Source of the DNA: Actinomyces israelii DSM 43320
GTDB lineage: Bacteria > Actinomycetota > Actinomycetes > Actinomycetales > Actinomycetaceae
DNA: 64,000 nucleotides
Direction: 5' to 3'
NCBI RefSeq assembly: GCF_000711965.1
Contig: NZ_JONS01000010.1
Location: 1-64,000, forward strand
The position numbers were made by a program, and so were the translations under genes. Position 1 is the first letter of the stretch; every line of letters starts with the position of its first letter. The notes below the pieces were generated by a model. It made no database searches and was not told where the DNA came from. It was given only the letters and a program-made list of their open reading frames with translations. Below are positions 1 to 17,057 of this stretch, piece after piece.

Positions 1-515
1 GCCAACAGGCCGGGAGAGCAGGTGGGTGGGCGATATCACCTATATCCGCACCTGGGAGGGGTTCGTGTACCTGGCGACCGTCCCCGGCTGCTGCACGAAG
101 AAAGCAGTCGGGTACGCGATGGCGGACAACATGCGCACCGATCTGATATGCGAGGCGATCGATATGGCGGCCCGCAGGTGCCCGTACACAAGAGGAGAGA
201 CGGTATTCCACTCGGACCGGGGGTGCCAGTACACCTCCGAGCAGCTCGCCAGGCACCTGGAGAGCTACGGCATTCGCCCTTCGGTGGGCAGGACCGGGGT
301 GTGCTGGGACAATGCCTGGGCGGAAGTCGGCGGGTGCGACCCTGAAGAACGAGAGGGTCTATCAGATGGTGTATCCCACAAGAAGCAAGGCCGTCCGGGA
401 TATTGCCTCCTGGATCGAGCTGGAATACAATCAGAAACGACTCCACTCCGCCCTGGGGTACAGGACGCCCAACGAGGTTGAGGAGGAGCACCGAGCAGTA
501 AGACAAGCAGCCTGA
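1..515 (+). pseudogene. IS3-family transposase (OrfB, DDE), 5'-truncated by the window and frameshifted
   Basis: Remnant of the DDE integrase of an IS3-family element, which cuts and joins the element's ends during transposition. The frame from 26 begins with the first catalytic Asp (GDITYI). It continues with the second in HSDRGCQYTS and the catalytic Glu in WDNAWAE. An extra G near 326 then breaks the frame: the rest (SAGATLKNERVYQ, then RLHSALGYRTPNE) is read in the +1 frame from about 327 to the stop at 513-515. Without the G the spacing from the catalytic Glu to TLK matches intact relatives. The 5' part (OrfA and the start of OrfB) lies outside the window. All three catalytic residues remain but no single frame encodes them together with the C-terminus, so it is probably inactive unless ribosomes frameshift here. 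Confidence 0.85.
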
Positions 516-533
516 AAGACCGCTTTCAGGGCT

Positions 534-701
534 GTCCGAGACACGCCCAGCAGTCCAGTTCTCTTGAGTGCGGCTGCCTGGGTGTTGCCTGTGTTCTTCT
601 TGGCCTCGCCCCAGACATGTTCTACGGGGCCAGAGGTAGGGTGCGTAGAGGGGCGTGCCTGACCAGGCACCCGGTGGTGGGCTGCTGGGTGTGTCTCGGG
701 C
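534..701. repeat. inverted copies of the IS 3' end between the two transposase remnants
   Basis: GTCCGAGACACGCCCAGCAG at 534-553 matches the complement of 682-701 (GCCCGAGACACACCCAGCAG) at 18 of 20 positions. Each copy lies a short way downstream of its own transposase remnant, as expected for the right end of one element present twice in inverted orientation. The exact terminus cannot be fixed, because similarity continues past the CA dinucleotide where an IS3 end would be expected. Nothing else was recognised between 516 and 744. Confidence 0.5.
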
Positions 702-744
702 TGTGGTTGATTGTGTTGGTCGGGCGGCTTTGTTACTGCTTACC

Positions 745-1290
745 GGATCGTGTTCGGCCTCGCTCTGCGTCCGGTACCCGAGCGCCGAGTGAAGACGCGT
801 CTGACTTGTGTACCGGGCTCGATCCGGGAGGCAGTGTCGTTGATGGCCTTGCGTCTGGTGGGGTGCACCATTGGCGTGGGCTCTTTCGTTCCTTCAGGGT
901 CGCACCCGCCGACCTCCGCCCGGGCGCCCGCCCAGCACGCCCCGCGGTCCTGCCCACCGAAGGAGGAGTGCCGTAGCCTTTCAGGTGCCTGGCGAGCCGG
1001 GCGGAGGCGTGCCGGGCTGCCGCGGCCCGGGGCGGGGCGGAAGATCGTCTTGTCCCTCCTCGTCGGGCACCTGCGGGCCGCCATATCGATCGCCTCGCAC
1101 ACCAGGGGCCGGTGCCGCGCGTGGTCGCCCCAGTGGCGTACCCGACCGCTTTCTGGGTGCAGCAGCCCGGGGACGGTCGCCAGACAGATCGGGTCCCTCC
1201 CCGGGTTCTGATACAGGTGGATGCCGCCCACCCACCTCACTCCCGGGCCTGCTGGCGGCGGGAGCCCCGCTTGACCAGGCCGGGACGCGA
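745..1290 (-). pseudogene. second, more degraded IS3-family transposase remnant, opposite orientation
   Basis: The complement of this stretch aligns with the remnant at 1-515. WVGGIHLYQ matches WVGDITYI, then CLATVPGLLH, EAIDMAARRCP and RHSSFGGQDRG follow, and finally RLHSALGYRT appears in another frame. The first catalytic Asp has become Gly, and the HSDRG and WDNA boxes are lost (FRPAPGRG and CWAGARA). Several frame changes separate the blocks. Weaker similarity (GLVKRGSRRQQARE) extends up to about 1290 and perhaps further. It carries the same extra G after the catalytic Glu position as the plus-strand copy. It points tail-to-tail at that copy, about 230 bp away. Confidence 0.75.
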
Positions 1291-1990
1291 GACTCCGGGC
1301 CCGGCGGCCCGGGCGGTGGCGCCGGGTCCCTCTCGGCGGGGCCGCGGCCTGGCGGGCCCTGGGAACGCACGGGCGGGTGCGCACCGCCTCGCGGCCCTGC
1401 GCCCGCGCCCCCGCGGCCGCAGGGCCGCGGTGACGCGCCGGTACCCGCAGGGCTCCGTCCGAGGCACCGAGCTCAGTCCTGATGAAAAGGACCAGTCCGC
1501 GTCGTCTGGTGGCAGCCGCCGACACCCGGCCCGCCGGCTCGCGGTAGCCCGACCCCCGGGCACCCCGGCCCCGCCGGCACACCAGCACAGGCCGGGCAGC
1601 CGTGCCCCTGGCGACCAGTGGCCTCCTACCCCGGGAGCCGCTTCCGCACCCCCACCCTTCGCGAAGTACGCCGCTGCTTCTTCCAGACAGCCCGCACCAC
1701 CACTCCCGGCGCTGCGGACTGCCAGGCGCGCAGCCCCCCGGGCCCCAGCCGACCCGCCGCGGAAACCCTCCTCACCCCCGGACGGCGGAATGACCCCTGC
1801 ACTACCCGCCCACCCAGCCCACCACTCCTCTGCGCCGGCAGACCACTGACAAGCAGACACCAACACGATCCTCCGACCCCTTCACCCACGCTCTCACGCA
1901 CAACCCGCAACCCCGAGCCCATCCGAGCACCACGCTCCCGACACAACCCCACCCTGTCCCGCCACCAGAACACCGGGCCCCCACTGTCCA
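1291..1990. other. about 700 bp without a recognisable gene
   Basis: Very GC-rich, proline- and arginine-rich in every frame, with open frames on both strands but no recognisable domain, ribosome binding site or start. The minus-strand side up to about 1480 may be the eroded 5' part of the IS3 remnant. It reads as decayed mobile-element DNA. Confidence 0.5.
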
Positions 1991-1994
1991 AGAA

Positions 1995-2150
1995 AAACCA
2001 CTCACTCCACAACGGCACCATCAGCCTCGCCGGGACCGCCTACCTCGTCTCCAGATCCCGAGCGGGCCAGGAGGCCCTGATCACCTGGGACGCCCACAGG
2101 ACCACCATCACCGACCCCCACGGCAAGGCCCACTCCCCCAGTACCCGTGG
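1995..2150 (+). pseudogene. possible C-terminal scrap of an IS481-like transposase
   Basis: The reading frame through 1995-2150 contains HNGTISLAGTAYLV, then RAGQEALITWD and TITDPHGKAHS. This resembles the small beta-rich domain after the DDE core in IS481-type integrases, where a line such as GTISLAG-x-YxVG is followed by a G(R/Q) step and an F-D/P-DG turn. No DDE core is present upstream. The frame runs on as an open but featureless stretch to 2253. This is a recognition by pattern only, so it is tentative. Confidence 0.35.
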
Positions 2151-2303
2151 CCGCAACCGGGAACCAGGCACGCCTCCCACCACGGCCCCGCCACACGCGC
2201 CACCCCAGGAGACCGCCCCCGCAAGAACCCCCGAAACGTCACCGATGCCCTGACACACCAACCATCACCAATCTCCTGAGACATCACAGTCCATGGTCGT
2301 CAC

Positions 2304-4406
2304 TCATACCCTAGGATTAGTACGCAGAAACTGCTGGTAAATCGATTCGCGGGTGATCCCGCGATGGGCGAGCACAGAGAGAAGGACGATCAGAATAATA
2401 TTCTCAGCCGCAACCGCCCCGATCGTTGTCGGCTCGATCGAGATGTCAACATAGGAGTCAGTGCTATCGAGGATCCACTGAGTCAGATGGCTGGAGAGCT
2501 GGCCGGAAAAAATGAGGTTGACCAGCAGAGCACCCAGAGCGATGGCCGCGAACAGTATAATCACGCTGCGCATGAACTCGCCCCTCGACATCCCGAACCC
2601 CCGCATGAGATTGATCTTCCACTCTATGAAGTCGATGAACGCGGAGAAGAGCTTGTAGGCAATATACGCGCTGACCAGGAGGATGACGGCGGTCAGTCCG
2701 TAGACAAGCGACAAGGTCCCTGCGGCCGAGTTCTGATAGAATTTTCTATAGTCCGCCCTGGACATGATCGTCGTACCGTCAGGAAATGCATCCTCAACCT
2801 CCTCCTTCGGAAGATCAGTCGCATAGTAGGTCGTCCCTTTCCCTTTGTACAATTCTTCGAACTCAGCGTTAGACATGTAGATCATCATGCCTGCATACTG
2901 TTCCGTACCCACGACGTCCGTTATCGTCACCATCTTGCCATTGATGTTCACGGTATTCCCGACCCCGATATTGTACTTCCTGGCCAGAGCGCGCCCGATA
3001 GCAACAGAATCGTCATTGAACGCCGAGCCGGACACCACATAGCCCTCATACCGGGAGAGATCGGTCGCATAAATCAGCGGATAGGCTCGCTCGCCGTTGA
3101 CCTCAATTCCACTGACGGGATTGATGTACGCAAATCGATGAAGGTCATGCTTATCCTCTATAGAGTCCGGGATACTGGCGGCTACGATCTGCGTCTCGAA
3201 GGGCATTGTCGTGTCTACCGATAGGTTCTCCTTCCGCATTACATCAAGCCCGATGGATACCGTACCGATATTGAGACCCGTGAGCACGGTCAGGATAACC
3301 AGCAGGCTCACCAGGGTCGCTCCCATGCTCCTGTAGAGGGATGACACCATCAGATGACGCTGAATCACGATCTCCATAATAACGAGCAGAACCGCGGCGA
3401 TGATGACGAGACCGTTCCTCGTGCACATGTACCCGGCCGCCCCTGCGGCGACACTGAGAATATATAAAAGCGACGGCGGCGCCTGGAATCTGGCAGTATC
3501 TCCCAGGCGAACTTTAACAAGAACTACCAGGATCAATGAGGCGATCAGCAGCGCAAATGTTGCCATCCATGCGGCAGCGAGAAGCAGAATCCAGTACCAG
3601 TGCGTCACGAGGGCCGCGACGATACCCGCGACAAGAAAGACCGAGCCGGTTTCCCATGCCACCCGTCTGAGCTCTTTCCGGTGGATCGTCACATAGCTGG
3701 TCGCTATCTCCCAGGGACTCGCGCCGAAACCGGCCAGGGCCTGCAGCTGCCGTGACGAATCGACAACTTGACGAAGGATCAGAGTAATCCATGCGACACC
3801 GCCCATGATCAACAGGGTGGCCGAGAAGATCCTGAGTATCAACTCGATGAGTGAATAGGTCTCGGCATTGATCTTCTGGTCGATGTTCTCGGCGGTCAAC
3901 CGCACGAAGCCCGCGTCGACGAGACGATCCGCGACGACTTTGTCCGGCTCCCGGTCGCATCGGATCTCACGCAGCGTCACCTTCGCTCCCGGTTCCATGA
4001 GGTAGATGTCGCCCAGACCATTGAGGGTCAGCGTCTCCGCGTACGTTCCAACGCACTGGCTGTCGCCGTCTGCATCGGAGGAATCACAATCCGAGCCACC
4101 GCCGTCGGGAGCGACATACTCGTCCGCGCGTGCGGGGGCGCGCCCTCGAACCAGAGACAGCGTTGAGAAGCTCGACATGAGTACCCGGCCATCCTGGTCG
4201 GTACCGATGATGGTGGCCGATGAGTCGGCGAGCTGCTCTATGAGGTCTCCGGGATCTGCTAGAACCCCACTTCGGTTATTGCTGACGTAGTACGCTCCGG
4301 TATGGGCATAGGCAGCTCTTTTGGATTCCTGAAAGCTCTGCAAAGCAATCGTGCTGACAGCATGAATGAGAACAATTAGAAGAATAAAACGGATGACGGT
4401 CTTCAC
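2304..4406 (-). CDS. FtsX-like ABC transporter permease linked to a small-peptide gene
   Basis: A 700-residue membrane protein, predicted to be the permease partner of the ATPase encoded just upstream. The N-terminus has one membrane segment (about 5-22) and then a large extracytoplasmic domain (about 25-180) with a Cys- and Asp-rich stretch. A cluster of membrane segments follows (about 187-385), then a second extracytoplasmic domain (about 395-565) and a C-terminal cluster (570-690). This doubled FtsX/MacB arrangement is common in transporters for peptides, lantibiotic immunity and lipid-linked substrates. The start is GTG at 4406, preceded by GGGGAG, and overlaps the ATPase stop by 4 bases (GTGA), so the two are translationally coupled. 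Codon use is much less GC-biased than in the housekeeping genes, which suggests transfer. The substrate is inferred from context only. Confidence 0.85.
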   Translation of the reverse strand: MKTVIRFILLIVLIHAVSTIALQSFQESKRAAYAHTGAYYVSNNRSGVLADPGDLIEQLADSSATIIGTDQDGRVLMSSFSTLSLVRGRAPARADEYVAPDGGGSDCDSSDADGDSQCVGTYAETLTLNGLGDIYLMEPGAKVTLREIRCDREPDKVVADRLVDAGFVRLTAENIDQKINAETYSLIELILRIFSATLLIMGGVAWITLILRQVVDSSRQLQALAGFGASPWEIATSYVTIHRKELRRVAWETGSVFLVAGIVAALVTHWYWILLLAAAWMATFALLIASLILVVLVKVRLGDTARFQAPPSLLYILSVAAGAAGYMCTRNGLVIIAAVLLVIMEIVIQRHLMVSSLYRSMGATLVSLLVILTVLTGLNIGTVSIGLDVMRKENLSVDTTMPFETQIVAASIPDSIEDKHDLHRFAYINPVSGIEVNGERAYPLIYATDLSRYEGYVVSGSAFNDDSVAIGRALARKYNIGVGNTVNINGKMVTITDVVGTEQYAGMMIYMSNAEFEELYKGKGTTYYATDLPKEEVEDAFPDGTTIMSRADYRKFYQNSAAGTLSLVYGLTAVILLVSAYIAYKLFSAFIDFIEWKINLMRGFGMSRGEFMRSVIILFAAIALGALLVNLIFSGQLSSHLTQWILDSTDSYVDISIEPTTIGAVAAENIILIVLLSVLAHRGITRESIYQQFLRTNPRV

Positions 4407-5074
4407 TGCTCCCCGCCTTCACGGTGGAGCTCTCCGCCTCGGAGCCAGAACCGATGCTCGAACTGGCTGGCCACGAGCGTCGAGTGGGTGACGAGCAGTA
4501 CCGTGCAGCTCTCCCGCTCATTAATATCTCGAATGAGGTCGATGACCGATTGGGAGCTGTCCTCGTCAAGAGCCCCCGTCGGCTCGTCCGCGAGAATGAG
4601 CTTCTTGTACGCGACCAGCGCGCGTGCGATCGCGATGCGCTGCTTCTCTCCACCGCTCAGCTCTTTCGCGGTTCTGGGCTGGAACCCGTCGAGTCCGACC
4701 CTCACGAGCATGGAGTCGATCACGCCTCGATGCTCCTGTTTGGGGACTTGAGAGAATCTCAGGGCGAGTCGGAGGTTTTCATCGACGGTGAGATCCTCGA
4801 AGATTCGAATGTCCTGGTAGATATAGGCGACGTACGAGCGGATGAGCTGCCGGGTTTTATTCTTAGAGAGCCCGGAGACCGGCTCACCATCATAGCTCAC
4901 AACTCCGGCATCGGCTCGTTCGAACAGTCCGACGATATTGAGCAGCGTCGTCTTTCCGGACCCGCTCTCGCCCAATATAATATTGACTTCATCAGGCACG
5001 AAGTCGCAACTGAGCTTCTCAAACAGAACTCGATTCCCAAACGATTTCCCCAGCCCGTCAACCCCGAGTCTCAC
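4403..5074 (-). CDS. ABC transporter ATP-binding protein of the peptide operon (FtsE/MacB/LolD type)
   Basis: A 223-residue ATPase, typical length for this family, which powers the FtsX-like permease downstream. Visible motifs are Walker A GESGSGKTT (about residues 36-44), a Q-loop in YIYQDIRIFEDL, the signature LSGGEKQR, Walker B LILADEPTGALDE and the H-loop THS. I chose the GTG at 5074 because GGAGGT lies 3 bases upstream and the encoded protein begins MRLGVDGLGKSF, as relatives do. A longer open frame reaches 5176 but would run through the upstream hairpin. The gene follows the 34-codon peptide gene after 80 bp and a strong hairpin. It probably serves export of, or self-protection against, that peptide. 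Confidence 0.9.
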   Translation of the reverse strand: MRLGVDGLGKSFGNRVLFEKLSCDFVPDEVNIILGESGSGKTTLLNIVGLFERADAGVVSYDGEPVSGLSKNKTRQLIRSYVAYIYQDIRIFEDLTVDENLRLALRFSQVPKQEHRGVIDSMLVRVGLDGFQPRTAKELSGGEKQRIAIARALVAYKKLILADEPTGALDEDSSQSVIDLIRDINERESCTVLLVTHSTLVASQFEHRFWLRGGELHREGGEQ

Positions 5075-5104
5075 GTTACCTCCGCCTAGTTCATTCACCT
5101 CAAA

Positions 5105-5142
5105 TTGTGGTTGGCGGAACGCAGCGGTTCCGCCAACCACAA
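5105..5142. terminator. intercistronic hairpin between the peptide gene and the ABC transporter genes
   Basis: A perfect 16-bp inverted repeat: TTGTGGTTGGCGGAAC at 5105-5120 pairs with its complement at 5127-5142 across a 6-base loop. On the minus strand it lies 12 bases after the peptide stop codon and about 30 bases before the ATPase start. The downstream T-run is short (AATTTG), so it would act as a partial terminator or an mRNA-stabilising stem. Such stems after precursor genes commonly give more peptide mRNA than transporter mRNA. Confidence 0.75.
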
Positions 5143-5154
5143 GCCCCGTCCTTG

Positions 5155-5259
5155 CTAATAGCAGCCACCGCCACAATTGATGCCGCTTGTCGGAGACACG
5201 TCCTCCTCAAGCTCAACGAGCTCATCAAGGTTGATCTCGTTGCTCTTCTCCTGCTCCAT
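5155..5259 (-). CDS. 34-residue Cys-containing peptide, candidate bacteriocin/RiPP precursor
   Basis: A very short gene that a length cut-off would miss. ATG at 5259 is preceded by AAAGGAGGTGA, a near-complete match to the anti-Shine-Dalgarno sequence, ending 5 bases before the ATG. The product starts MEQEKSNEINLDEL, is acidic through about residue 20 (VELEEDV), then turns into SPTSGINCGGGCY at the C-terminus. An acidic, Leu/Glu-rich leader followed by a Gly/Cys/Ser/Thr core is typical of ribosomally made, modified or disulfide-bonded peptides. The two Cys residues flank GGG, so a five-residue CGGGC ring by disulfide or other crosslink is possible. It is the first gene of an operon with an ATPase and an FtsX-like permease. 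No modifying enzyme or protease is visible nearby. I do not recognise the family. It could alternatively be a signalling peptide. Confidence 0.75.
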   Translation of the reverse strand: MEQEKSNEINLDELVELEEDVSPTSGINCGGGCY

Positions 5260-5273
5260 TAGACTCACCTCCT

Positions 5274-5342
5274 TTACTTCAGCACACGAACCCAAGCTCC
5301 TTCGCTGGGATGAAGACTATCACCTTTTCGAGCCGCACGCAT
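5274..5342 (-). CDS. possible 22-codon leader ORF upstream of the peptide gene
   Basis: ATG at 5342 opens a 22-codon frame (MRAARKGDSLHPSEGAWVRVLK would be its product, written here as the 22 residues' start MRAARKGD and end WVRVLK). Its TAA stop at 5276-5274 lies within the spacer just before the AGGAGG of the 34-codon peptide gene. No convincing ribosome binding site precedes it. It may be a chance frame, or a leader whose translation affects access to the next gene. Not recognised. Confidence 0.2.
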   Translation of the reverse strand: MRAARKGDSLHPSEGAWVRVLK

Positions 5343-5361
5343 CCGTTCGAGCGCTTTACTT

Positions 5362-5380
5362 GTTCGCGAACTTGCTTATA
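5362..5380 (-). promoter_or_regulatory. possible promoter and palindromic operator of the peptide operon
   Basis: On the minus strand a TATAAG hexamer (5380-5375) is followed at once by the perfect 10-bp palindrome GTTCGCGAAC (5362-5371). This arrangement would let a repressor cover the transcription start. No good -35 box stands 17 bp upstream, so the -10 assignment is weak. The leader between this site and the peptide ATG is about 100 bases. Confidence 0.3.
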
Positions 5381-5812
5381 GCGGTGTTACGAAAGCTCCT
5401 TGAGTCAGTGGTCGATGCTGGCGAAGTTACTGGATGTGCGTTACTACCCGGTTCGTTGCAGTCGCCTCACCATAGTGTGTCGTGAGAAGCGGCAGCCGTA
5501 TAGATGCCAGGGGCGGGGCCGAGCCGTTTGTGAGGGGCGTCAGGCTCCGGGTTTTCCGCAGGGTCGACCACCTGGTTATGGCGACAGCTTCCAGGAGTCC
5601 TGGTTGCGGACGGCGTCGGCTCATGCAGGAAGCCTGCGTCCTCGGCCAGGGCGCCATCCAGGAGTCTTTCGGGCCCCTACGGAGGTGACGACCGGCAGTC
5701 GGCGTGGGCCTGGTTGTGCGCCAACATCCCGGCGCTGCGTCTCTCGACTCGGTGCGGCGCGAACGGGCCGGTCAGGTCAGCCCCGTCGGTTCGCCCACCC
5801 CACGGGGCCGAC
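5381..5812. other. about 430 bp with no recognisable gene
   Basis: Short open frames occur on both strands, for example 5427-5657 minus, but none has a recognisable domain or a good ribosome binding site. GC content rises again from about 5500, so the right edge of the lower-GC island probably lies between 5400 and 5500. Confidence 0.5.
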
Positions 5813-6763
5813 CTACTGCGTCCGGGACGCGCGCTCCCGGCCAACCAGGGCGGCCAGGACCAGGTCGTGGATCGGGGTGGGCACGCCGGCCTCGTCCCCC
5901 GCGCGGCACACGGCGCCTACCTGGGCGTCGAGCTCGCTGGGCAGACCGGCGGCGATGTCCCGCTGCATCGAGGTCGTGGCGTGCTCGGGCTGCTGGTCGG
6001 CCAGCGCGAGAACCCGCTCCACGTACGCGGCCGGGTCCTCGGCCACCGGGTGCCCCAGGGCCGCGGCCACCTCGACGGTCTCACGGACCATGGCCCGATA
6101 GCTGTCGCGCAGCGCAGTCCGCAGGACGCCGATCGGGGCTCCCGCGACCGCCCCGAGGCCCCCCTGGGGCACGACGAAGGCGGCCTTGCGCCACAGCTCG
6201 GCCCAGATGTTCTCCGAGGCCCGCGCGCTCACCCCGGCCGAGCGCAGGGCCGCCACGAGCTCGCGCACCCGGGGGCTCGTCCCGCCGTCCCACTCCCCTA
6301 CCTGCATGGCGCCCAGGTCGCTCATGGTCTCGACACGACCGCGCTCCACCACCCGGGCGTAGACCCGGGCGACGCCGGGCAGGACCCGCTCCCGCCCCAC
6401 GGCCCGGGCCACGAGCCGGGGCGCCTCCACCCCGTTCTGAGTGGTGACGACGGCGGTGCGCGGCCCGGCGAGGGCCCGCAGCGCCGGGGCCAGCCCGTGG
6501 ATGGCCCCCACCTTGGTGGCCAGGAGGACCGTCTGCGGCCGCGGGCCGAGGGCCCGGAGGAGCTCGGCCGGGTCCGCCGCGGCCACGGGCGTCTCGATCC
6601 GGGCGCGCACCGAGCCTCCGGGCCCGGTCAGGGTGAGCCCGCGGCGGCCCAGGGCCTCCAGCGTCGCGCCGTGGACGAGGAAGCCGACGCGGTGACCGGC
6701 GTCGGCCAGCCGCGTCCCGAGCCAGCCGCCGATCCCTCCGGCGCCGATGACCACGATGTCCAT
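5813..6763 (-). CDS. panE: 2-dehydropantoate 2-reductase family protein (PanE/ApbA-like)
   Basis: A 316-residue NADPH-dependent reductase of the ketopantoate reductase family, which reduces 2-dehydropantoate to pantoate in the pathway to pantothenate and CoA. The N-terminal Rossmann fold shows GAGGIGGWLGTRLA (residues 7-20). TTQNGVEAP is the conserved Asn-Gly segment near the substrate. The C-terminal helical domain contains the family pattern SSMQRDI as TSMQRDI and ends with a PTPIHDLV-like segment. Length fits the family (about 300). The start ATG at 6763 begins the Rossmann strand (MDIVVIGAGG); longer frames upstream overlap the GNAT gene and are not believable. Distant paralogues act on other keto acids, so the exact substrate is inferred. 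Confidence 0.85.
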   Translation of the reverse strand: MDIVVIGAGGIGGWLGTRLADAGHRVGFLVHGATLEALGRRGLTLTGPGGSVRARIETPVAAADPAELLRALGPRPQTVLLATKVGAIHGLAPALRALAGPRTAVVTTQNGVEAPRLVARAVGRERVLPGVARVYARVVERGRVETMSDLGAMQVGEWDGGTSPRVRELVAALRSAGVSARASENIWAELWRKAAFVVPQGGLGAVAGAPIGVLRTALRDSYRAMVRETVEVAAALGHPVAEDPAAYVERVLALADQQPEHATTSMQRDIAAGLPSELDAQVGAVCRAGDEAGVPTPIHDLVLAALVGRERASRTQ

Positions 6764-6791
6764 GCCGTCTCCCGTCGTCGACCGGGGCCCG

Positions 6792-7391
6792 TCACCGGGC
6801 CCGGCGCCGCCCCGGGACTGCGGGGGCGAAGACGGTCCGCGCCATGTCCTGGTGCCAGATCCCCGCGTCCAGGTACCGTTCGCCGCCCACGACGGTGTAG
6901 CCGCAGCGCTCGTAGAAGCCCATGGCCTGCTCCTGGGCGGACAGCATGACGGTGACGGCGGCTCCGCCGTCCTCCTGGGCCACTGCGGCCCGCCGCCGGG
7001 CCGCGTCCTCGATGGCGGCGACCATCCGGACGCCGAGGCCGGTGCCCCGGCAGACGCGCCGCACGGCCAGCCGCCCCAGGTGGACCAGGCCGGGGCGCCC
7101 CGGGTCGGCCAGCAGCCGCCCGGCCGCCAGCGGCGCCCCGTCCGCCCCGCGGGCCAGCACGTGGATGGTGGTGGGCTCATCGTCGCGGGCGTCGATCTCC
7201 AGGGCCAGGGGGACGTCCTGCTCGGCCACGAAGACCTCCAGGCGGACGTCGGCGATGCCGGCGCGGACGGACTGCGCGGCCGGGTCGGCGGCGTCGCCCG
7301 CGCAGGTCTCGAACCGGTAGGGCTCGACGGCGGCGCTCACGGGCGGGATCAGTAGGTCGGGGAACCCGGGGTGCGTGGTGGACAAGGTCAT
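6792..7391 (-). CDS. GNAT-family N-acetyltransferase
   Basis: A 199-residue acetyltransferase that would transfer acetyl from acetyl-CoA to an unknown amine. The core shows ADVRLEVFVAEQDVP, then LGRLAVRRVCRGTGLGVRMV with the acetyl-CoA-binding R-x-x-G-x-G/A loop (RGTGLG). MGFYERCGYTVVGG near the C-terminus is the usual GNAT tail. The pattern is close to the ElaA/YjdJ type (VFVVEQ plus GRLAV). An N-terminal extension of about 45 residues precedes the domain. It lies 28 bp upstream of the panE-like gene on the same strand, so the two may be cotranscribed. Confidence 0.85.
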   Translation of the reverse strand: MTLSTTHPGFPDLLIPPVSAAVEPYRFETCAGDAADPAAQSVRAGIADVRLEVFVAEQDVPLALEIDARDDEPTTIHVLARGADGAPLAAGRLLADPGRPGLVHLGRLAVRRVCRGTGLGVRMVAAIEDAARRRAAVAQEDGGAAVTVMLSAQEQAMGFYERCGYTVVGGERYLDAGIWHQDMARTVFAPAVPGRRRAR

Positions 7392-7436
7392 CGGTTCCTC
7401 CAGGGCCGGTTGGTGTGCGGTTCGATCTATGAATGA

Positions 7437-8357
7437 TCACGGCACGCGCAGCACGTCAAGGGCGTGGGCGAGGTCGTCGGGATAGTCGGCGTGGAAGGTC
7501 ATCCGCTCCCCCGTGATCGGGTGGGCGATGCCGAGCTCGCGGGCGTGCAGCCACTGGCGCGCCAGGCCGGTGCGGGCGGCCAGGGCCGGGTCGGCGCCGT
7601 AGGTGAGATCCCCCACGCAGGGGTGGCCGACGGCGGCCATGTGCACCCGGATCTGGTGGGTGCGCCCGGTCTCGAGACGGACCCGCGCCAGGCAGGCCGC
7701 GGGCATGGCCTCGATGACGTCGTAGTGGGTGACGGACTCGCGCCCGCCGTCGAGGATCGCCATCCTCCACTCCCGGCCCGGGTGCCGGCCGATGGGGGCG
7801 TCGATGGTGCCGCTGATGGGGTCGAGGTGCCCCTGGAGGAGGGCGTGGTAGACCTTGGAGACCTCGTGCTCCCGGAAGGCGCGCTTGAGGACCGAGTAGG
7901 CCCGTTCCCCCTTGGCCACGATCATGACGCCGGAGGTGCCCACGTCCAGGCGGGAGACGATGCCCTGGCGCTCGGCCGCCCCGGAGGTCGCCACCCGTAC
8001 CCGCATCGCCTTCAGGGCGCCGAGCACGTCGGGGCCGTCCCAGCCCATGGTGGGGTGGGCGGCCACGCCGGCGGGCTTGTCGACGACGACGATGTCCTCG
8101 TCCTCGTAGAGCAGCCCCATGCCGTCCACCGGGGTGGCCGCGGGGCCGGCGGGCCTCGGCTCGGGCATGTCCGCCTCGATCATGGCGCCGGCGGCCACCC
8201 GCCCGGACTTGCCGGCCGGGGCGCCGTCGAGGCGGACCGCCCCGGCCGCGCACAGCTCGCCCACCTTGGAGCGGGACAGGCCGGTCATCCGGGACAGGGC
8301 GACGTCGACCCTCTCCCCCGCCAGCCCGTCGGGCACCGGCAGCAGCCGCAGGCTCAT
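7437..8357 (-). CDS. rluD: RluA/RluD-family 23S rRNA pseudouridine synthase
   Basis: Isomerises specific uridines in 23S rRNA to pseudouridine. The 306-residue protein has an S4 RNA-binding domain at the N-terminus ([18 protein letters not shown], about 14-70). A pseudouridine synthase catalytic domain follows, with [15 protein letters not shown] and the catalytic Asp in SRLDVGTSG. It closes with [20 protein letters not shown]. Length fits RluD (about 305-325). The start ATG overlaps the lspA stop by 4 bases (ATGA), and the lspA-rluD pair at this place is the usual actinobacterial arrangement. The precise target uridines cannot be read from the sequence. Confidence 0.93.
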
Positions 8358-9139
8358 GGCCGCTCGTCCCGGGCGGCCTCGTCCTCCGGCCCGGCGGCGC
8401 CCACCGTCGTCGGGGCACCGTCCGCGGCGGTGCCGGCGGAGGCGTCCGCGGCGGTGGCGGCGGAGGGGGGCCCGTCCCGCCCGTCTCCGCCTGCGGGAGC
8501 GTCGTCCACCTCCTGCTCATCGGTGCCGTCGGGGTCGTGGTCCCCCGCCCGGCTGCCGTCGATCTCGAAGCCCGCGGCGGACAGGGCCATAATGGCCGCG
8601 GCCGCGCCGACGATGGCGATGTCGGCGACGTTGCCGACGAACAGGCCCCCGTAGTCGATGAAGTCGACGACGTGCCCGCGGAAGATCCCGGGCTCGCGGG
8701 CGAGCCGGTCGATGAGGTTGCCGACGGCGCCGCCCAGGACGAGGCCGAGCGTGACCGCCCACCACATGGACCCCAGCCGCCTCGACACCCGCAGCACGAT
8801 GACGGTCACGACCACGGCGACCGCGGTGAAGACCCAGGTCTGGCCCGTGGCGAAGGAGAAGGCCGCGCCGGGGTTGCGGACGAGCACGAGGCCCAGCCAG
8901 TGGCCCAGCAGGTCGATGCGCCCCGCGCCCCTCAGGACGGTCACCGCCCACGCCTTCGTCAGCTGGTCGACCACGACGACGCCCAGCGCGAGGCACCACA
9001 GCACGACGATCCAGCGGCTGGGGCGGGGCAGGCGCGCCGTCGCCGGTCTGGAGAAGAGTCGCCCGCGGGTGCCGCCGCGGGCGGCGGAGGCGCGCGGCGC
9101 AGGGATGTCGGCGGGTGCGGGGTCGGGCATCTGGCTCAT
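8354..9139 (-). CDS. lspA: lipoprotein signal peptidase (signal peptidase II) with long acidic tail
   Basis: Cleaves the signal peptide of diacylglyceryl-modified prolipoproteins in the membrane. The 261-residue protein has four membrane segments between about residues 45 and 190. Conserved boxes are [39 protein letters not shown] with the first catalytic Asp, and [24 protein letters not shown] with the second. The N-terminal 40 residues and the last 65 are extra. The C-terminus is low-complexity, rich in Asp, Gly and Ala, and makes the protein much longer than the usual 160-200. The start is ATG at 9139 with AAGGAA 4 bases upstream. Confidence 0.93.
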
Positions 9140-9161
9140 GGTTCCTTGAAGTCGTCATGCG

Positions 9162-9204
9162 CGGCCGAGGGCGGCGGCCCGGGAGGGGCCGCCGCCCTCG
9201 GCCG
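9162..9204. terminator. 19-bp perfect GC hairpin between wag31 and lspA
   Basis: Bases 9162-9180 are perfectly complementary to 9186-9204 around a 5-base loop. The hairpin lies downstream of wag31 and upstream of lspA on the minus strand and has no T-run. It probably terminates or attenuates transcripts from the division cluster so that lspA-rluD can be set separately. Confidence 0.6.
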
Positions 9205-9259
9205 ACGGGTGCGGTCCGTCCGCACCGCGCCCGGCAGTGGCGCGCCGCGGAGGCCGGGC

Positions 9260-9919
9260 TCACAGGCCCGCGGCGGTCGCCTCCTCCCCGTCCTCGACGT
9301 TGGACAGCAGACCCTGCAGGTAGCTCTTGAGCCGAGTGCGGTAGTCGGACTCGAAGCGGCGCAGCTCGTCGATCTTGTGCTCCAGACCGGAGCGCTCCTT
9401 CTCGAGCTGGGCCAGGGTGCGGTTGCGCTGGTCCTCCGCCTCGCGGACGATCTGCTCGCCGGTGGCGCGGGCCTCGCCGATGATGCGCTCGCCCTCGGCG
9501 CGGCCGTTGGCGACGTGCTCGTCGTGCAGGCGCTGCGCCAGCTCGAGCATGCCGGAGGCGGCACTGGGCTCCTCGCCGCCACCGGGACCGCCGCCCTGGA
9601 ACATGGTGGGCGGCGTCATCACCGGTGCGACCGGGGCGACCGGGGCGACCGGGGGCTGGGGCTCCTGCACGACCGGCTCGACGACGGTGGTCTCCGAGAT
9701 CCCGCGAGCGGCAGTGTCGCCGAGCTCGGCCACGCGCCTGTTGGCGGCCTCGAGCTTGGCCTTGAGGTCGGCGTTCTCAGCCTCCAGCTGGCGCATCGCC
9801 TCGACGACCTCGTCGAGGAACTCGTCGACCTCGTCCTGCTCGTAGCCCTCGCGGAACTTGGTCGCCTGGAACTTCTTGTTGAGGACGTCGTCTGCCGTCA
9901 GCAGCGTCATGGTCGTCAC
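9260..9919 (-). CDS. wag31: DivIVA/Wag31 polar growth and septum-site protein
   Basis: A cytoplasmic coiled-coil scaffold that binds curved membrane at poles and septa and recruits wall-synthesis enzymes. The 219 residues begin with the conserved membrane-binding segment LTADDVLNKKFQATKFREGYEQDEVDEFLD (residues 6-35, quoted here as start LTADDVLNKKF and end EVDEFLD). A short coil (45-75), a linker rich in Pro, Val and Ala with PVAPVAPVAPV (about 85-105), and a long C-terminal coiled coil (120-205) follow. This is the standard DivIVA layout. It sits at the end of the dcw cluster as in other actinobacteria. The start has GAGGTGACGACC just upstream. Confidence 0.95.
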   Translation of the reverse strand: MTTMTLLTADDVLNKKFQATKFREGYEQDEVDEFLDEVVEAMRQLEAENADLKAKLEAANRRVAELGDTAARGISETTVVEPVVQEPQPPVAPVAPVAPVMTPPTMFQGGGPGGGEEPSAASGMLELAQRLHDEHVANGRAEGERIIGEARATGEQIVREAEDQRNRTLAQLEKERSGLEHKIDELRRFESDYRTRLKSYLQGLLSNVEDGEEATAAGL

Positions 9920-10149
9920 CTCGGTGTCGTTACGGAAGATGTCACGGTCACCGGTTCAACCGGTCACTCATGCAACTAGGGTACCTGAACTCGAGGTTCA
10001 GGCCACTTTGGATGCACCCGCTCATGTCACGGTGCGATATCGATAGCCCGCGCAAAGCGCCCGATTCTCGGCCTGACGCCCATTACTCCGCTGCTGGAAA
10101 AGCCTGACGAGGAGCGTGTCACGGCAGTTCAGCGGCCAGCGGAGCGCCG
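9920..10149. promoter_or_regulatory. wag31 upstream region with an inverted repeat
   Basis: About 230 bp without a gene. It contains the inverted repeat CCTGAAC-TCGAG-GTTCAGG (around 9984-10002). On the minus strand the hexamer TACCCT follows directly and could be a TAnnnT -10 box for a separate wag31 promoter. No good -35 box is visible. Confidence 0.3.
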
Positions 10150-10440
10150 TCAGCGCAAGAGCGCAAGCAGGCGCTGGAGGATGACGATCGCGACGACCAG
10201 CACCAGAAAGCTCAGGTCGATGCCCATGCCGCCCAGCCGCAGCGCCGGGATCATCCGGCGCAGTCGCCGCAGGGGCGGGTCGGTCAGCCCGTAGACCAGG
10301 TTCGCCACCACGAGCACCACGCCGGTGGGACGCCAGTCCCGGGCGAACATCTGCACCCAGTCGATCACGACGCGCACGAGCAGGACCAGCATGTAGAGGC
10401 TGAGCAGGCTCGAGAGGATCGAGGCCGTCGCGGCGATCAT
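10150..10440 (-). CDS. yggT: YggT-family membrane protein
   Basis: A 96-residue integral membrane protein with two hydrophobic segments (about 8-28 and 70-92). Between them is the family motif around WVQMFARDWRPTGVV and TDPPLRRLRRMIPALRLGGMGIDLS, where TDP-x-L-x-x-x-R-x-x-x-P is characteristic. Its biochemical role is unknown. The gene is regularly found between sepF and divIVA, and it has been linked to division and cell-envelope homeostasis by that position. It follows sepF by 14 bp on the same strand and is almost certainly cotranscribed. Confidence 0.88.
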   Translation of the reverse strand: MIAATASILSSLLSLYMLVLLVRVVIDWVQMFARDWRPTGVVLVVANLVYGLTDPPLRRLRRMIPALRLGGMGIDLSFLVLVVAIVILQRLLALLR

Positions 10441-10454
10441 CGTCGCCCTCCTCC

Positions 10455-10928
10455 TCAGCTCTGGTTGAAGAAGCGGCCGTTGGCGGCGGTGGCGATGGCG
10501 CCCCCGTCGATGTCGACCGACGCGGGCGTCAGCAGGAAGACGCGCGGCGTGACCCGCTCGATGGCGCCGTGGAGGCCGAAGACCAGGCCGGCGGAGAAGT
10601 CGACCATGCGGCGGGCGTCGGACTCGCTCATGTTGGTCAGGTTGACGATGACGGGCACGCCGTCGCGGAAGGACTCGCCGATGACCCGCGCCTCGTTGTA
10701 GGTGGAGGGGTGGACCGTGACGATCCGGCGAAGATCCGGGGCGGCCGCCGGCTCGGGGGCATCGGCCTCCTCATAGGCGCGGTCGTAGGGCTCGTCGTAC
10801 TCCTCCTCCTCAGCGGGCGCGTACTCCTCGTCGTCATAGGCGGCCTCGGCCTGGTAGCCGCCCTCATAAGCGTTCTCAACGGGCTCGGAGTAACCGAGGA
10901 AGTTCGTCATCTTGCGCAACGCGCTCAT
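10455..10928 (-). CDS. sepF: SepF cell division protein
   Basis: A membrane-tethering partner of FtsZ. In actinobacteria without FtsA, SepF is the main anchor. The 157 residues begin with [15 protein letters not shown], an amphipathic N-terminal helix thought to bind membrane. A long acidic, Tyr-rich linker follows (about 20-60, with repeated [14 protein letters not shown]). The folded SepF domain is about 68-150 ([18 protein letters not shown], then VIVNLTNM, then [15 protein letters not shown]). GAAGGAG lies 8 bases before the ATG. The domain order and the location between the ftsZ group and yggT match other actinobacteria. Confidence 0.95.
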
Positions 10929-14242: not shown

Positions 14243-15762
14243 GCCGCACCGTCCTGACGGGCGCCGAGCCGCTCCAGGATCACGGGGCCGAGCCGGGTGA
14301 CGTCCCCGGCGCCGATGGTCAGCGCCACGTCGCCGGGCCGGGCGGCATCGGCCAGGGCGCGGGCGGCCCGGTCGTGGTCCGCTATGTACCGGGCGCCCTC
14401 GACCCGGTCGGCGACGGTGGCGCCGGTGACGTCCGGAAAGTCCTCCTGGGTCTCGCGCGCGGGGTAGATGGAGGTCACGACGACGACGTCGGCGTGTCCC
14501 AGGGCGACGCCGAAGCGGTCGGCGAAGGCGCGGGTGCGGGAGAACAGGTGCGGCTGGAACAGCGCCAGGACGCGGCCGCCGCGGGCGTCGGCGACCTCGC
14601 GGGCGGCGGTCAGCAGCGCCTCGATCTCGGTGGGGTGGTGGGCGTAGTCGTCGATGACGCGCACCCCGGCCGCCTCCCCGCGCACCTCGAAGCGGCGCCC
14701 GGTCCCGCCGAAGGCGCCCAGGGCGCGGGCCATGGCCTCAGGGGCCACGCCCAGCTCGATCCCGGCGGCCCAGGCGCCGGCGGCGTCCAGGGCGACGTGG
14801 TCGCCGGGTAGGGCGAGCTCCAGGCGGATCGGACCGGTGACCGTGCGCTCCTCCGGGCGCGCCGGGCCCTGCCGCGTCGCCGGGCCCGCCTCGCCGCTCC
14901 ACAGGGTCAGCCGCGCGCTGGTGCCGCCGGCGCGGCGCTCGGTGATCTCCACGCGCGCGTGGGCACGATGGGCCCCGCCGCAGCAGCCCCCCGACTCCCC
15001 CGGGCAGGCGCCGTCGGTGCCGTAGGTCGTCGTCAGCACGCCCCGGTCGACCGCGGCGCGCGCCAGGCGCGCACCGCCGGGGTCGTCGGTGCACACGATG
15101 AGCCTGCCGCCGGGCCGGATGCTGCACGCGAAGTCGAGGAAGGCCCGCTCGAAGGCCTCGGGGGTGCCGTAGCTGTCGAGGTGGTCGGGCTCGACGTTGG
15201 TGACGACCGCCAGGTAGGGGTCGTAGTTGAGGAAGGAGCGGTCGGACTCGTCGGCCTCGGCCACGAAGGCGCGGCCGGCGCCGAGGCGGGCGCCGGTGCC
15301 CAGGTCGCGCACGACGCCGCCGACGGCGAAGGAGGGGTCCTCCCCCGCCACCGACAGGGCCTGGGCGAGCATGCCGGAGGTGGTCGTCTTGCCGTGGGCC
15401 CCGGCCACGGCCACGAAGTCGCGCCCCCGGGCCGCCAGGGCGAGCGCCTGGGAGCGGTGGATGACCTCCTGCCCGCGCTCGCGGGCGGCCGCCAGCTCGG
15501 GGTTGGTCTCCTTGATGGCGGTCGAGACCACGACCGTGGCCCCGGGCGGCACGTGAGCGGCGTCGTGGCCCAGCACGACCGCCAGGCCCAGCTCTCGCAG
15601 GTGGTCGAACGCGTCGCCGCCGACGGCGTCCGAGCCGGTGACGGTGGCGCCGCGCTCGGTCAGGAGCTGGGCGAGCACGCTCATGCCGGCGCCGCCGACG
15701 CCGATGAGGTGGAAGGCGCGCCCGCTGAGGTCGGTCGGCTCGTCCGTCGTCATCACTCGCAT
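14239..15762 (-). CDS. murC: UDP-N-acetylmuramate--L-alanine ligase
   Basis: Adds L-Ala to UDP-MurNAc, the first step of stem-peptide synthesis. The 507-residue protein shows an N-terminal Rossmann fold (FHLIGVGGAGMSVLAQLL, about 17-34). The ATP-binding P-loop is GAHGKTTTSGML (about 115-126). Mur-ligase motifs follow (EADESDRSFLNYDP, then NVEPDHLD). The C-terminal ligase domain has DDYAHHPTEIEALL. I chose ATG 15762 because it overlaps the murG stop (TGATG) and CAGGAGG lies a few bases upstream. A longer frame upstream lies inside murG and is an artefact. Confidence 0.96.
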   Translation of the reverse strand: MRVMTTDEPTDLSGRAFHLIGVGGAGMSVLAQLLTERGATVTGSDAVGGDAFDHLRELGLAVVLGHDAAHVPPGATVVVSTAIKETNPELAAARERGQEVIHRSQALALAARGRDFVAVAGAHGKTTTSGMLAQALSVAGEDPSFAVGGVVRDLGTGARLGAGRAFVAEADESDRSFLNYDPYLAVVTNVEPDHLDSYGTPEAFERAFLDFACSIRPGGRLIVCTDDPGGARLARAAVDRGVLTTTYGTDGACPGESGGCCGGAHRAHARVEITERRAGGTSARLTLWSGEAGPATRQGPARPEERTVTGPIRLELALPGDHVALDAAGAWAAGIELGVAPEAMARALGAFGGTGRRFEVRGEAAGVRVIDDYAHHPTEIEALLTAAREVADARGGRVLALFQPHLFSRTRAFADRFGVALGHADVVVVTSIYPARETQEDFPDVTGATVADRVEGARYIADHDRAARALADAARPGDVALTIGAGDVTRLGPVILERLGARQDGAA

Positions 15763-17057
15763 CAATCGGCCTCCTGGTCCGCCGACTCTCCGGTGGAATC
15801 GGCCTCGGGTCTCGTCTCGGGCTGCGGACCGGCCCCTGGTCCGGCGGCGACGGAGCGGACGAGCGCCGCCAGGCGGGCGGCGGCGTCGCGCACCCCGGTG
15901 GAGGCGGCGGCCTCGGCGGCCTCGGCGCGGGCCTCGGCGTCGGCCAGCAGGTCGGTGAAGGACACGATGTCGTCGGCGGCCAGGTCGCCGTCGGGCACGA
16001 GGCGGCCCCCGCCGGCGGCGACGGTGTCGGCGGCATTGAGCCTCTGCTCGCCGTTGCCGATGGGCAGCGGCACGTAGAGGGCGGGCAGGCCCAGGGCGGT
16101 CAGCTCGGCCACGGTGCCCGCGCCGGAGCGGCAGATGACGCCGTCGGCGCACGCGTAGGCCTGCTCCATGGCGGACAGGTAGTCCAGCACGTGGTAGCGG
16201 TCGGTCAGGTCGGGGGCGCACTCGCCCTCGGCGGCGGCCCGCTCCAGGGCGGCGCGCACGGGCGCGTCCTTGTCGCGCCCCGTCAGGTGGAGGATCTGGA
16301 GGTCGGCGGGCAGGCGCGCCAGGGAGGAGGCGATGACCTCGTTGAGGTGCTGGGCGCCCAGGGAGCCGCCGGTGATGAGAAGGGTCGGGGCCAGGGGATC
16401 CAGGCCCAGGGCGGCCGCGCCCCGGCTGCGGGCGCGCGCGGCCCCCTCGGCGTCGGCCCGTTCGGCCACCAGGGCTCCGATGGCGGGCCGTAGGGGCAGG
16501 CCGGTGACCTCGGTGCGCCCCTTGGAGGCCTTCAGGCGGGTCGAGGCGAAGGTCAGGGCCACCGCCGCCGCCCAGCCGGCGCCCAGGCGGTTGGCCAGGC
16601 CGGGCCGGGCGTTCTGCTCGTGGATGACCACGGGCACGCCCGCCTGCCGGGCGGCCAGGTAGGCGGGCGTCGACACGAAGCCCCCGAAGCCGACGACGAC
16701 CTGCGCACCCACGCGCCCGATGGCCTCCCCGGCGGCGGCCACGGCCTTCTGCAGCCGCCGCGGCAGCATGAACAGGTCCCCGGTGGGGCGGCGCGGCATC
16801 GGCACCCGGGGCACGTAGGCGAGCTCGTAGCCGGCCTCGGGCACGAGGCGGTCCTCCAGCCCCTCCCGGGTGCCCAGCACGAGGAGCTCGGCGCGCTCGT
16901 CCCCGCCGATCGCCGGGTCGCGCAGGGCGGCGGCCGTGGCCAGGAGCGGGTTGACGTGTCCGGCGGTGCCGCCGCCCGCGAGCAGCACGCGCAGCGGGCG
17001 GCGGGCCGCGGATGCGGGGGCGTCCTCGGGCGCACCGGTGAGATGGGTGTCAGGCAC
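15762..17057 (-). CDS. murG: UDP-GlcNAc:lipid I N-acetylglucosaminyltransferase MurG
   Basis: Transfers GlcNAc to lipid I to give lipid II on the inner face of the membrane. The 431 residues include the lipid I-binding glycine loop GGGTAGHVNPLLA (about 28-40). They also include HEQNARPGLAN and the second glycine-rich loop ITGGSLGAQHLNE. The UDP-GlcNAc pocket reads ICRSGAGTVAELTALGLPALYVPLPIGNGEQ (start ICRSGAGTV, end PIGNGEQ). It is longer than usual (about 360) because of N- and C-terminal extensions rich in Ala, Glu and Asp. Its start overlaps the ftsW stop by 8 bases. Confidence 0.96.
   Translation of the reverse strand: MPDTHLTGAPEDAPASAARRPLRVLLAGGGTAGHVNPLLATAAALRDPAIGGDERAELLVLGTREGLEDRLVPEAGYELAYVPRVPMPRRPTGDLFMLPRRLQKAVAAAGEAIGRVGAQVVVGFGGFVSTPAYLAARQAGVPVVIHEQNARPGLANRLGAGWAAAVALTFASTRLKASKGRTEVTGLPLRPAIGALVAERADAEGAARARSRGAAALGLDPLAPTLLITGGSLGAQHLNEVIASSLARLPADLQILHLTGRDKDAPVRAALERAAAEGECAPDLTDRYHVLDYLSAMEQAYACADGVICRSGAGTVAELTALGLPALYVPLPIGNGEQRLNAADTVAAGGGRLVPDGDLAADDIVSFTDLLADAEARAEAAEAAASTGVRDAAARLAALVRSVAAGPGAGPQPETRPEADSTGESADQEAD

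What the first reader, a model, noticed from the sequence alone, without database searches (positions are those of the whole stretch)
5155..5259. Unannotated 34-residue Cys peptide gene heading an ABC-transporter operon
A 34-codon gene with a perfect ribosome binding site (AAAGGAGGTGA), an acidic leader-like half and a C-terminus SGINCGGGCY stands first in an operon with an ATPase and an FtsX-like permease. Precursor plus ABC transporter is the minimal layout of a bacteriocin, RiPP or signal-peptide system. No known precursor family comes to mind, and no maturation enzyme is next to it, so export and self-protection by the transporter, with a disulfide-only or trans-acting maturation, is the simplest model.
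Basis: partly seen in the sequence, partly recalled or inferred. Interest (0 to 1): 0.85.

Follow-up and report, generated by a model that had tools for sequence, protein, structure and literature searches.

The report
Orphaned precursor of unnamed RiPP family
The small gene is real: it encodes the raw peptide of a rarely seen family of bacterial peptide natural products that relatives appear to finish with a radical-chemistry enzyme, but in this genome a mobile element seems to have cut off the genes that should process it.

Summary
On the minus strand, 5259-5155 encodes MEQEKSNEINLDELVELEEDVSPTSGINCGGGCY, with AAAGGAGGTGA in front, followed by an ABC ATPase and an FtsX/MacB-like permease. 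It is not chance: homologous peptides precede homologous transporters in Actinomyces oris WVU627 and Bifidobacterium bohemicum. Over the three pairs pN/pS is 0.15-0.28 (Fisher p<1e-6), and a strong hairpin follows each precursor. In the window a repeated element, inferred to be an insertion sequence, begins directly after the peptidase gene's first two codons. The peptidase and maturase were not found in the assembly; the M50 gene is absent from the window but was not sought beyond it. So this is a truncated radical-SAM RiPP operon: precursor and transporter remain. 'RiPP precursor plus transporter' is supported; 'disulfide-only maturation' is not. The precursors match no NCBIfam model, the maturase reached no listed cut-off, and the paper listings seen did not name the family. 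The layout resembles the epipeptide locus (precursor, radical SAM, M50, ABC). Cross-link chemistry and activity are unknown.

The parts
5155..5259 (-). Precursor peptide gene, 34 codons plus stop; acidic leader (about residues 1-26) and Cys-X3-Cys core
   Evidence: homologues in L010 and L014; purifying selection
5158..5181 (-). Core region INCGGGCY (residues 27-34); core limits inferred from the Gly that precedes it and the GG of the relatives
   Evidence: alignment; cleavage site is inference
5265..5275 (-). Ribosome binding site AAAGGAGGTGA; GGTGA is 5 nt before the start in all three loci (for A. oris, before the GTG at L010:11158)
   Evidence: regions printed
5106..5141 (-). 15-bp hairpin between precursor and ATPase, no T tract; may set precursor excess over downstream genes (inferred)
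   Evidence: intergenic stretch -31.1 kcal/mol, z -3.4, 0 of 200 shuffles as stable; hairpins at the same place in L010 (z -4.5) and L014 (z -3.5); no terminator pattern found
4403..5074 (-). ABC transporter ATPase, open reading frame intact
   Evidence: 75% identical to A. oris ATPase over 219 aa, 56% to B. bohemicum
2304..4406 (-). FtsX/MacB-type permease, 700 aa, open reading frame intact
   Evidence: 57% identical to A. oris, 36% (best segment) to B. bohemicum
2289..2294 (-). ATG GAC: all that is left of the cysteine-peptidase gene (both relatives begin MDCY)
   Evidence: junction alignment; element end mapped
2010..2288 (.). End of a repeated element, inferred insertion sequence; two other copies in the genome begin at the same TGTGATGTCTCAG with different flanks
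   Evidence: L025; L033; no Pfam match in the ORF over it
1500..2009 (.). Second repeat piece (the query began at 1500, so it may start earlier), 100% copy elsewhere in the genome
   Evidence: C14:94080-94589
26..481 (+). Transposase fragment with integrase core domain at the contig end (window position 1 = contig position 1)

Best explanation
The 34-codon gene is the precursor of a small radical-SAM RiPP family carried on foreign-looking, low-GC DNA. In the longer operons the order is precursor, hairpin, ABC ATPase, FtsX-type permease, BtrH-like cysteine peptidase, radical SAM/SPASM maturase, M50 membrane protease. Inferred working: the acidic leader (EIxLxELVxLEEDxSP) is read by the maturase, which cross-links the C-terminal Cys-X3-Cys core; the cysteine peptidase and/or the M50 protease removes the leader; the ABC pair exports the product and/or protects the cell. 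The hairpin keeps precursor mRNA in excess. In the window an inferred insertion sequence now stands after codon 2 of the peptidase gene, and the maturation genes no longer follow. The peptide there is probably made but not matured, and the transporter may remain as immunity or as a recent relic. Shown: homology, gene order, selection, the junction, failure to find peptidase and maturase in the assembly. Inferred: every enzymatic step, the leader/core border, export, immunity, and that the element is an insertion sequence.
For: Precursor homologues directly upstream of the homologous ATPase in A. oris (L010) and B. bohemicum (L014); 17 invariant columns, start Met included; Smith-Waterman z 16 to 24. 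pN/pS 0.18/0.83, 0.27/0.98, 0.12/0.79, Fisher p<1e-6 for all 3 pairs. Both relatives carry the peptidase, radical SAM (CX3CX2C in the alignment) and M50 genes, with conserved MDCY/RRHMGAHY and HEFxH/NLYPxxFTDGFN. Element end at window 2288. Maturase profile: 838 and 829 bits in the two relatives, nothing at E<=1e-5 in the own genome; peptidase: nothing at E<=0.01 in the own genome, found in both relatives. GC of operon against surroundings: 0.559/0.746, 0.495/0.706 and 0.661, 0.344/0.539 and 0.549. Hairpin in 3 of 3 loci.
Against: Only three loci were found, so conservation rests on three sequences. The assembly is in 102 contigs and the window begins at a contig end, so a displaced second half could lie in a gap. 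The M50 gene was sought only in the window, not in the rest of the genome. The core differs in the window (GINCGGGCY against GGGCG[AG][FL]C), and no GG precedes its first Cys. In B. bohemicum the permease, peptidase and M50 genes are in shifted frames, so only A. oris shows a fully open operon. The ORFs at 743-1588 and 1618-2250 had no Pfam match, so the element is called an insertion sequence only from its repeated, sharp end. No experiment links maturase and precursor.
Confidence: 0.82

Rival explanations
1. The window copy is a working two-component system: the unmodified or disulfide-bonded peptide is exported by the ABC pair as a bacteriocin or signal.
For: Peptide, ATPase and permease are all open; two Cys in a Cys-X3-Cys spacing in 3 of 3 precursors.
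Against: Both relatives carry a radical SAM gene and two protease-like genes, and a repeated element cuts this copy after codon 2 of the next gene. Neither protease of the relatives was found in the window.
Confidence: 0.08
2. The peptide is matured in trans by another radical SAM enzyme of the same genome, such as the SkfB-like one about 98 kb away on the same contig.
For: An SkfB-like radical SAM stretch exists at C9:103417-103797.
Against: Its best model is SkfB (84 bits over the matched stretch), whereas the relatives' enzyme is closest to PapB. It has its own candidate peptide upstream, and its reading frame is shifted in the assembly.
Confidence: 0.05
3. The locus has been kept as an immunity or cheater locus: the transporter protects against the family's product made by neighbours, and the precursor gene persists passively.
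For: ATPase and permease stay fully open after loss of the maturation genes; in the epipeptide locus the ABC pair was proposed as self-protection, although LiaIH proved the stronger determinant (PMC7026026, passages read).
Against: The insertion may simply be recent; no date for the loss was set. No test of protection exists.
Confidence: 0.3

Closest known systems
Epipeptides (YydF/EpeX; yydFGHIJ = epeXEPAB)
   Same: Short precursor, radical SAM enzyme, M50 membrane protease and an ABC pair in one operon (PMC7026026, passages; PMC10885120, passages); the A. oris M50 protein hits the YydH/LiaK model best (the B. bohemicum one was not scanned).
   Different: That hit is 43.4 bits against a cut-off of 225. 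The radical SAM enzyme's best model is PapB, not an epimerase. There is an extra BtrH-like cysteine peptidase, and the Cys-X3-Cys core is unlike YydF (recalled).
PapB-type ranthipeptides
   Same: The best radical SAM model for both relatives is NF047865 PapB (189.7 and 198.4 bits); the best solved structure is 5wgg (recalled as the SCIFF maturase CteB).
   Different: Below the PapB cut-off of 340. PapB links Cys to Asp/Glu in CX3D/E motifs (PMC9413430, abstract and passages); these cores have CX3C and no Asp/Glu after the first Cys.
Lactococcin 972-type bacteriocin export systems
   Same: The window ATPase's best model is TIGR03608 (191.8 bits).
   Different: Below its cut-off of 254.85. The peptide is 34 residues, with no hydrophobic signal stretch visible in the sequence.
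Streptosactin (Ggg) sactipeptides
   Same: Gly-rich Cys core and radical SAM/SPASM enzyme (the GggB model is among the weak hits: 79.9 and 81 bits); the core likeness is recalled.
   Different: Far below the GggB cut-off of 650; different transporter and proteases (recalled).

Membership tests
Radical-SAM RiPP cluster | Short precursor next to a radical SAM/SPASM enzyme with CX3CX2C | tested here: met
   Met in A. oris and B. bohemicum; not met locally in the window, where the enzyme is missing
Radical-SAM RiPP cluster | Enzyme modifies the precursor | not testable with these tools
   Needs co-expression and mass spectrometry
Epipeptide (YydF/EpeX) | M50 protease of the YydH/LiaK family at its cut-off | tested here: not met
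   A. oris protein 43.4 bits, cut-off 225
Epipeptide (YydF/EpeX) | Radical SAM epimerase of the YydG kind | tested here: inconclusive
   No epimerase model among the best 25 shown of 79 and 80 families; the rest were not shown
PapB ranthipeptide | Maturase reaches the NF047865 cut-off | tested here: not met
   189.7 and 198.4 bits, cut-off 340
[quoted passage not shown]
   Core is Cys-X3-Cys in 3 of 3 precursors
Lactococcin 972 system | ATPase reaches the TIGR03608 cut-off | tested here: not met
   191.8 bits, cut-off 254.85
Any curated precursor family in Pfam or NCBIfam | A match to the peptide | tested here: not met
   0 families: window peptide at E<=1 in both libraries; the two relatives at E<=0.01 in NCBIfam only
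BtrH_N (PF14399) | Gathering score reached by the cysteine-peptidase-like protein | tested here: not met
   A. oris protein 23 bits, cut-off 29.7; Cys and His stretches kept in both relatives

The most novel reading that the evidence does not exclude
These operons make a new class of very short RiPP: an acidic leader is cut after the Gly-Gly of the SPATGG stretch, releasing a six-residue radical-SAM-cross-linked Cys-X3-Cys macrocycle (GCGGLC or GCGAFC). Two dissimilar proteases (papain-like and M50) share the trimming. The operon moves between Bifidobacterium and Actinomyces on insertion sequences, and broken copies such as the window's persist as immunity loci.
Probability: 0.2. Interest if true: 0.75.

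Novelty: new variant of a known kind. Interest (0 to 1): 0.47.

Why it matters
It exposes a small-ORF RiPP family whose precursors had no NCBIfam model here and, in the one annotated record seen, no listed gene. One operon is fully open (A. oris, from the human mouth) and ready to test. It combines a radical SAM maturase with two different protease-like proteins and an FtsX-type ABC pair. The window copy shows how a mobile element can strip a RiPP cluster to precursor plus transporter, a layout that invites misreading as a minimal bacteriocin system.

Tried and rejected
Rejected: chance ORF; disulfide-only minimal system as the native state (relatives carry maturation genes). Weakly supported: trans maturation by the SkfB-like enzyme.

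Led nowhere: viral-contig scans with the permease alone, the permease alignment, the maturase and the precursor confirmed no relative; the first genome-contig scan with the window permease alone likewise. The second rested on two short peptide patterns only, so it will have missed diverged relatives. Plasmid tblastn with the 34-aa peptide found nothing even at E 10, although a homologue is in that collection, so that search was insensitive. The plasmid collection gave only the A. oris record for the window permease and for the A. oris peptidase; for the A. oris maturase it gave 591 records, of which only A. oris was at 60% identity or more; for the M50 protein, 71 records, likewise. The phage collection gave nothing for the permease. 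Solved-structure searches with the permease profile and the peptidase were empty or meaningless. AlphaFold of the permease from 3 rows gave mean pLDDT 41.8, so no fold search was run and nothing is concluded from it. Rfam gave no hit at gathering score for 2200-5900; the promoter and terminator scans of 5000-5900 were empty. Papers: the listings shown by eight searches (several were cut to the best 15) did not name this family; only passages of PMC7026026, PMC10885120 and PMC9413430 were seen.

Weak rows not counted as relatives: 4 of 394 genomes besides the own one had 25-28% partial permease matches (E 1e-6 to 6e-6, all of one genus), taken as generic FtsX permeases, two other genomes of 49 had peptide matches at E 0.52 and 0.73, taken as noise, three weak radical SAM matches in the own genome, of which one (L013) was not classified.

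Full report
What is in the sequence. The reported ORF is on the minus strand: ATG at 5259, stop at 5157-5155, product MEQEKSNEINLDELVELEEDVSPTSGINCGGGCY. AAAGGAGGTGA lies at 5275-5265. It is followed by an ABC ATPase (5074-4403) and a 700-residue permease (4406-2304) that starts in a GTGA overlap with the ATPase stop. The ATPase is closest to TIGR03608, lactococcin 972-type export, but below the cut-off (191.8 against 254.85). The permease shows only sub-threshold FtsX and MacB_PCD matches. The peptide matches no Pfam or NCBIfam family at E<=1.

Relatives. The window permease found one plasmid-collection record, NZ_CP116225.1 of Actinomyces oris WVU627 (55.6%). Its gene table shows ATPase, permease, hypothetical protein, radical SAM protein, hypothetical protein. 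An unlisted ORF sits upstream of the ATPase (L010:11149-11253); judged by its ribosome binding site, it probably starts at the GTG at 11158 (MERDDEIDLDELVQLEEDVSPATGGGCGAFC). A scan of the species-genome collection with the two-permease alignment, by two short peptide patterns only, gave one further locus, in Bifidobacterium bohemicum DSM 22767 (L014). It has the precursor MNNKPIKPVDNEIDLSELVRLEEDASPATGGGCGGLC and the same gene order. ATPases are 75% (A. oris) and 56% (B. bohemicum) identical to the window's. The maturases of the two relatives are 45% identical to each other.

The peptide is under selection as a protein. The three precursors align with 17 invariant columns, start Met included: EIxLxELVxLEEDxSP...G..CG..C. 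Smith-Waterman z-scores are 16 to 24 against 2000 shuffles per pair; the homologous ORF scored 102 and 93 while the next best of 709 and 745 open segments in the two loci scored 33. Over 26 aligned codons, third-position differences are 15, 18 and 14 against 4-9 at the other positions. pN/pS is 0.18/0.83, 0.27/0.98 and 0.12/0.79 (uncorrected proportions), Fisher p<1e-6 in each.

What the relatives carry and the window lacks. In A. oris the permease is followed by a protein with a weak BtrH_N match (23 bits, cut-off 29.7), a radical SAM/SPASM protein (best NCBIfam model PapB ranthipeptide maturase, 189.7 bits, cut-off 340) and an M50 protein (best model YydH/LiaK, 43.4 bits, cut-off 225; Pfam Peptidase_M50 25.5 bits, cut-off 27.2). 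B. bohemicum has the same three, the radical SAM gene open (PapB 198.4 bits), the permease, peptidase and M50 genes in shifted frames. Shared candidate catalytic stretches are MDCY and RRHMGAHY in the peptidase, HEFxH and NLYPxxFTDGFN in the M50 protein; their catalytic roles, and the papain-like nature of BtrH_N, are recalled. tblastn of the A. oris peptidase, radical SAM and M50 proteins against the window found no credible match at E<=1 (best 24.6 bits over 18 residues, peptidase; none for the other two).

How the window lost them. Homology to A. oris continues past the permease stop to ATG GAC, the first two codons of the peptidase gene (2294-2289). At 2288 a repeated element begins with TGTGATGTCTCAGGAGAT. 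Of the 13 other places in the genome matched by 1500-2340, two reach this end (to 2291 and 2289 by BLAST); read by eye both begin with the same TGTGATGTCTCAG and have different flanks (C82; C1:274267). I infer an insertion sequence; the ORFs at 1618-2250 and 743-1588 gave no Pfam match, while 26-478 has an integrase core. The contig ends at window position 1. The radical SAM profile that scores 838 and 829 bits in the two relatives finds nothing in the window's genome at E<=1e-5. A single-protein query with the A. oris enzyme gave three weak partial matches (26.6-29 bits): one is MoaA-like, one SkfB-like, the third was not classified. The peptidase finds nothing at E<=0.01. The M50 protein was not sought outside the window. 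The genome is rated 100% complete but in 102 contigs, so a gap cannot be excluded.

Mobility and rarity. The operon is lower in GC than its surroundings in all three hosts: 0.559 against 0.746, 0.495 against 0.706 and 0.661, 0.344 against 0.539 and 0.549. In B. bohemicum it lies between inverted 1.37-kb repeats of 99.9% identity that hold a transposase-like ORF (identification recalled). The permease was found in 1 of 49 genomes of the window's genus, 1 of 200 of the family and 1 of 112 of the B. bohemicum genus, each time a genome that supplied the query. In the class it was found in 1 of 394, with 4 weak partial matches besides. The maturase profile found 0 of 396 genomes of the order and 0 of 392 of the phylum at E<=1e-40; these sets are samples and held no known positive.

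The hairpin. Between precursor and ATPase each locus has a strong stem-loop with unrelated sequence (-31.1, -35.4 and -27.8 kcal/mol for the intergenic stretch; z -3.4, -4.5, -3.5; 0 of 200 shuffles as stable in each). No terminator pattern was met in the window. Kept position with changed sequence points to a role at the RNA level, most simply precursor excess through partial termination or mRNA protection. This is inference.

Mechanism. By analogy with epipeptide loci (precursor, radical SAM epimerase, M50 protease, ABC pair; PMC7026026 and PMC10885120, passages seen) the likely order is radical SAM modification, leader removal, export and self-protection. The chemistry is open: PapB links Cys to Asp/Glu (PMC9413430, abstract and passages), and these cores have no such residue after the first Cys, so a Cys to alpha-carbon link (sactionine type) within the Gly-rich core or a link to the C-terminal residue are candidates. 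In the window the peptide should be translated but not matured; whether the transporter is kept for immunity is untested.

Verdict. A real gene and a real RiPP family that reached none of the curated NCBIfam cut-offs shown, seen in a broken copy. Interest is moderate: the family is worth expressing from A. oris, while the window locus itself is most likely a relic.

Noticed in passing
G000 contig C9:103090-104411 (L020:5091-6412), same contig as the window: SkfB-like radical SAM gene in two overlapping frames (shifted in the assembly), with a hydrophobic two-Cys candidate peptide upstream (...YMSVVPVCSTVAFVAFLAACAATAV) and CPBP-protease/ABC-type genes downstream (reading of the downstream genes recalled, not searched): looks like a separate sporulation-killing-factor-like locus.
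   Followed up: partly
L017 (NZ_CP116225.1:1-50000): The 415-kb A. oris 'plasmid unnamed1' carries groL, cysS, ispF, rlmB and clpB, so it is probably a piece of chromosome (or a chromid) rather than a plasmid.
   Followed up: no
L010:23368-26085: A YcaO-like protein and a thiazolylpeptide-type bacteriocin gene lie about 7 kb beyond the radical SAM operon in A. oris WVU627.
   Followed up: no
L014:7669-9039 and 15554-16924: Inverted repeats, 99.9% identical, with a transposase-like ORF, frame the B. bohemicum operon like a composite transposon.
   Followed up: partly
L021 (AP012283.1, Melissococcus plutonius plasmid) 3316-10520: A small ORF, two ABC ATPase-type genes, a permease and a protein related to the A. 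oris M50 one (29% over about 150 residues), without an annotated radical SAM gene in the stretch shown: possibly another peptide-export cluster.
   Followed up: no
window 1-2288: Patchwork of repeated pieces at the contig end; 13 other matching places in the genome for 1500-2340.
   Followed up: partly
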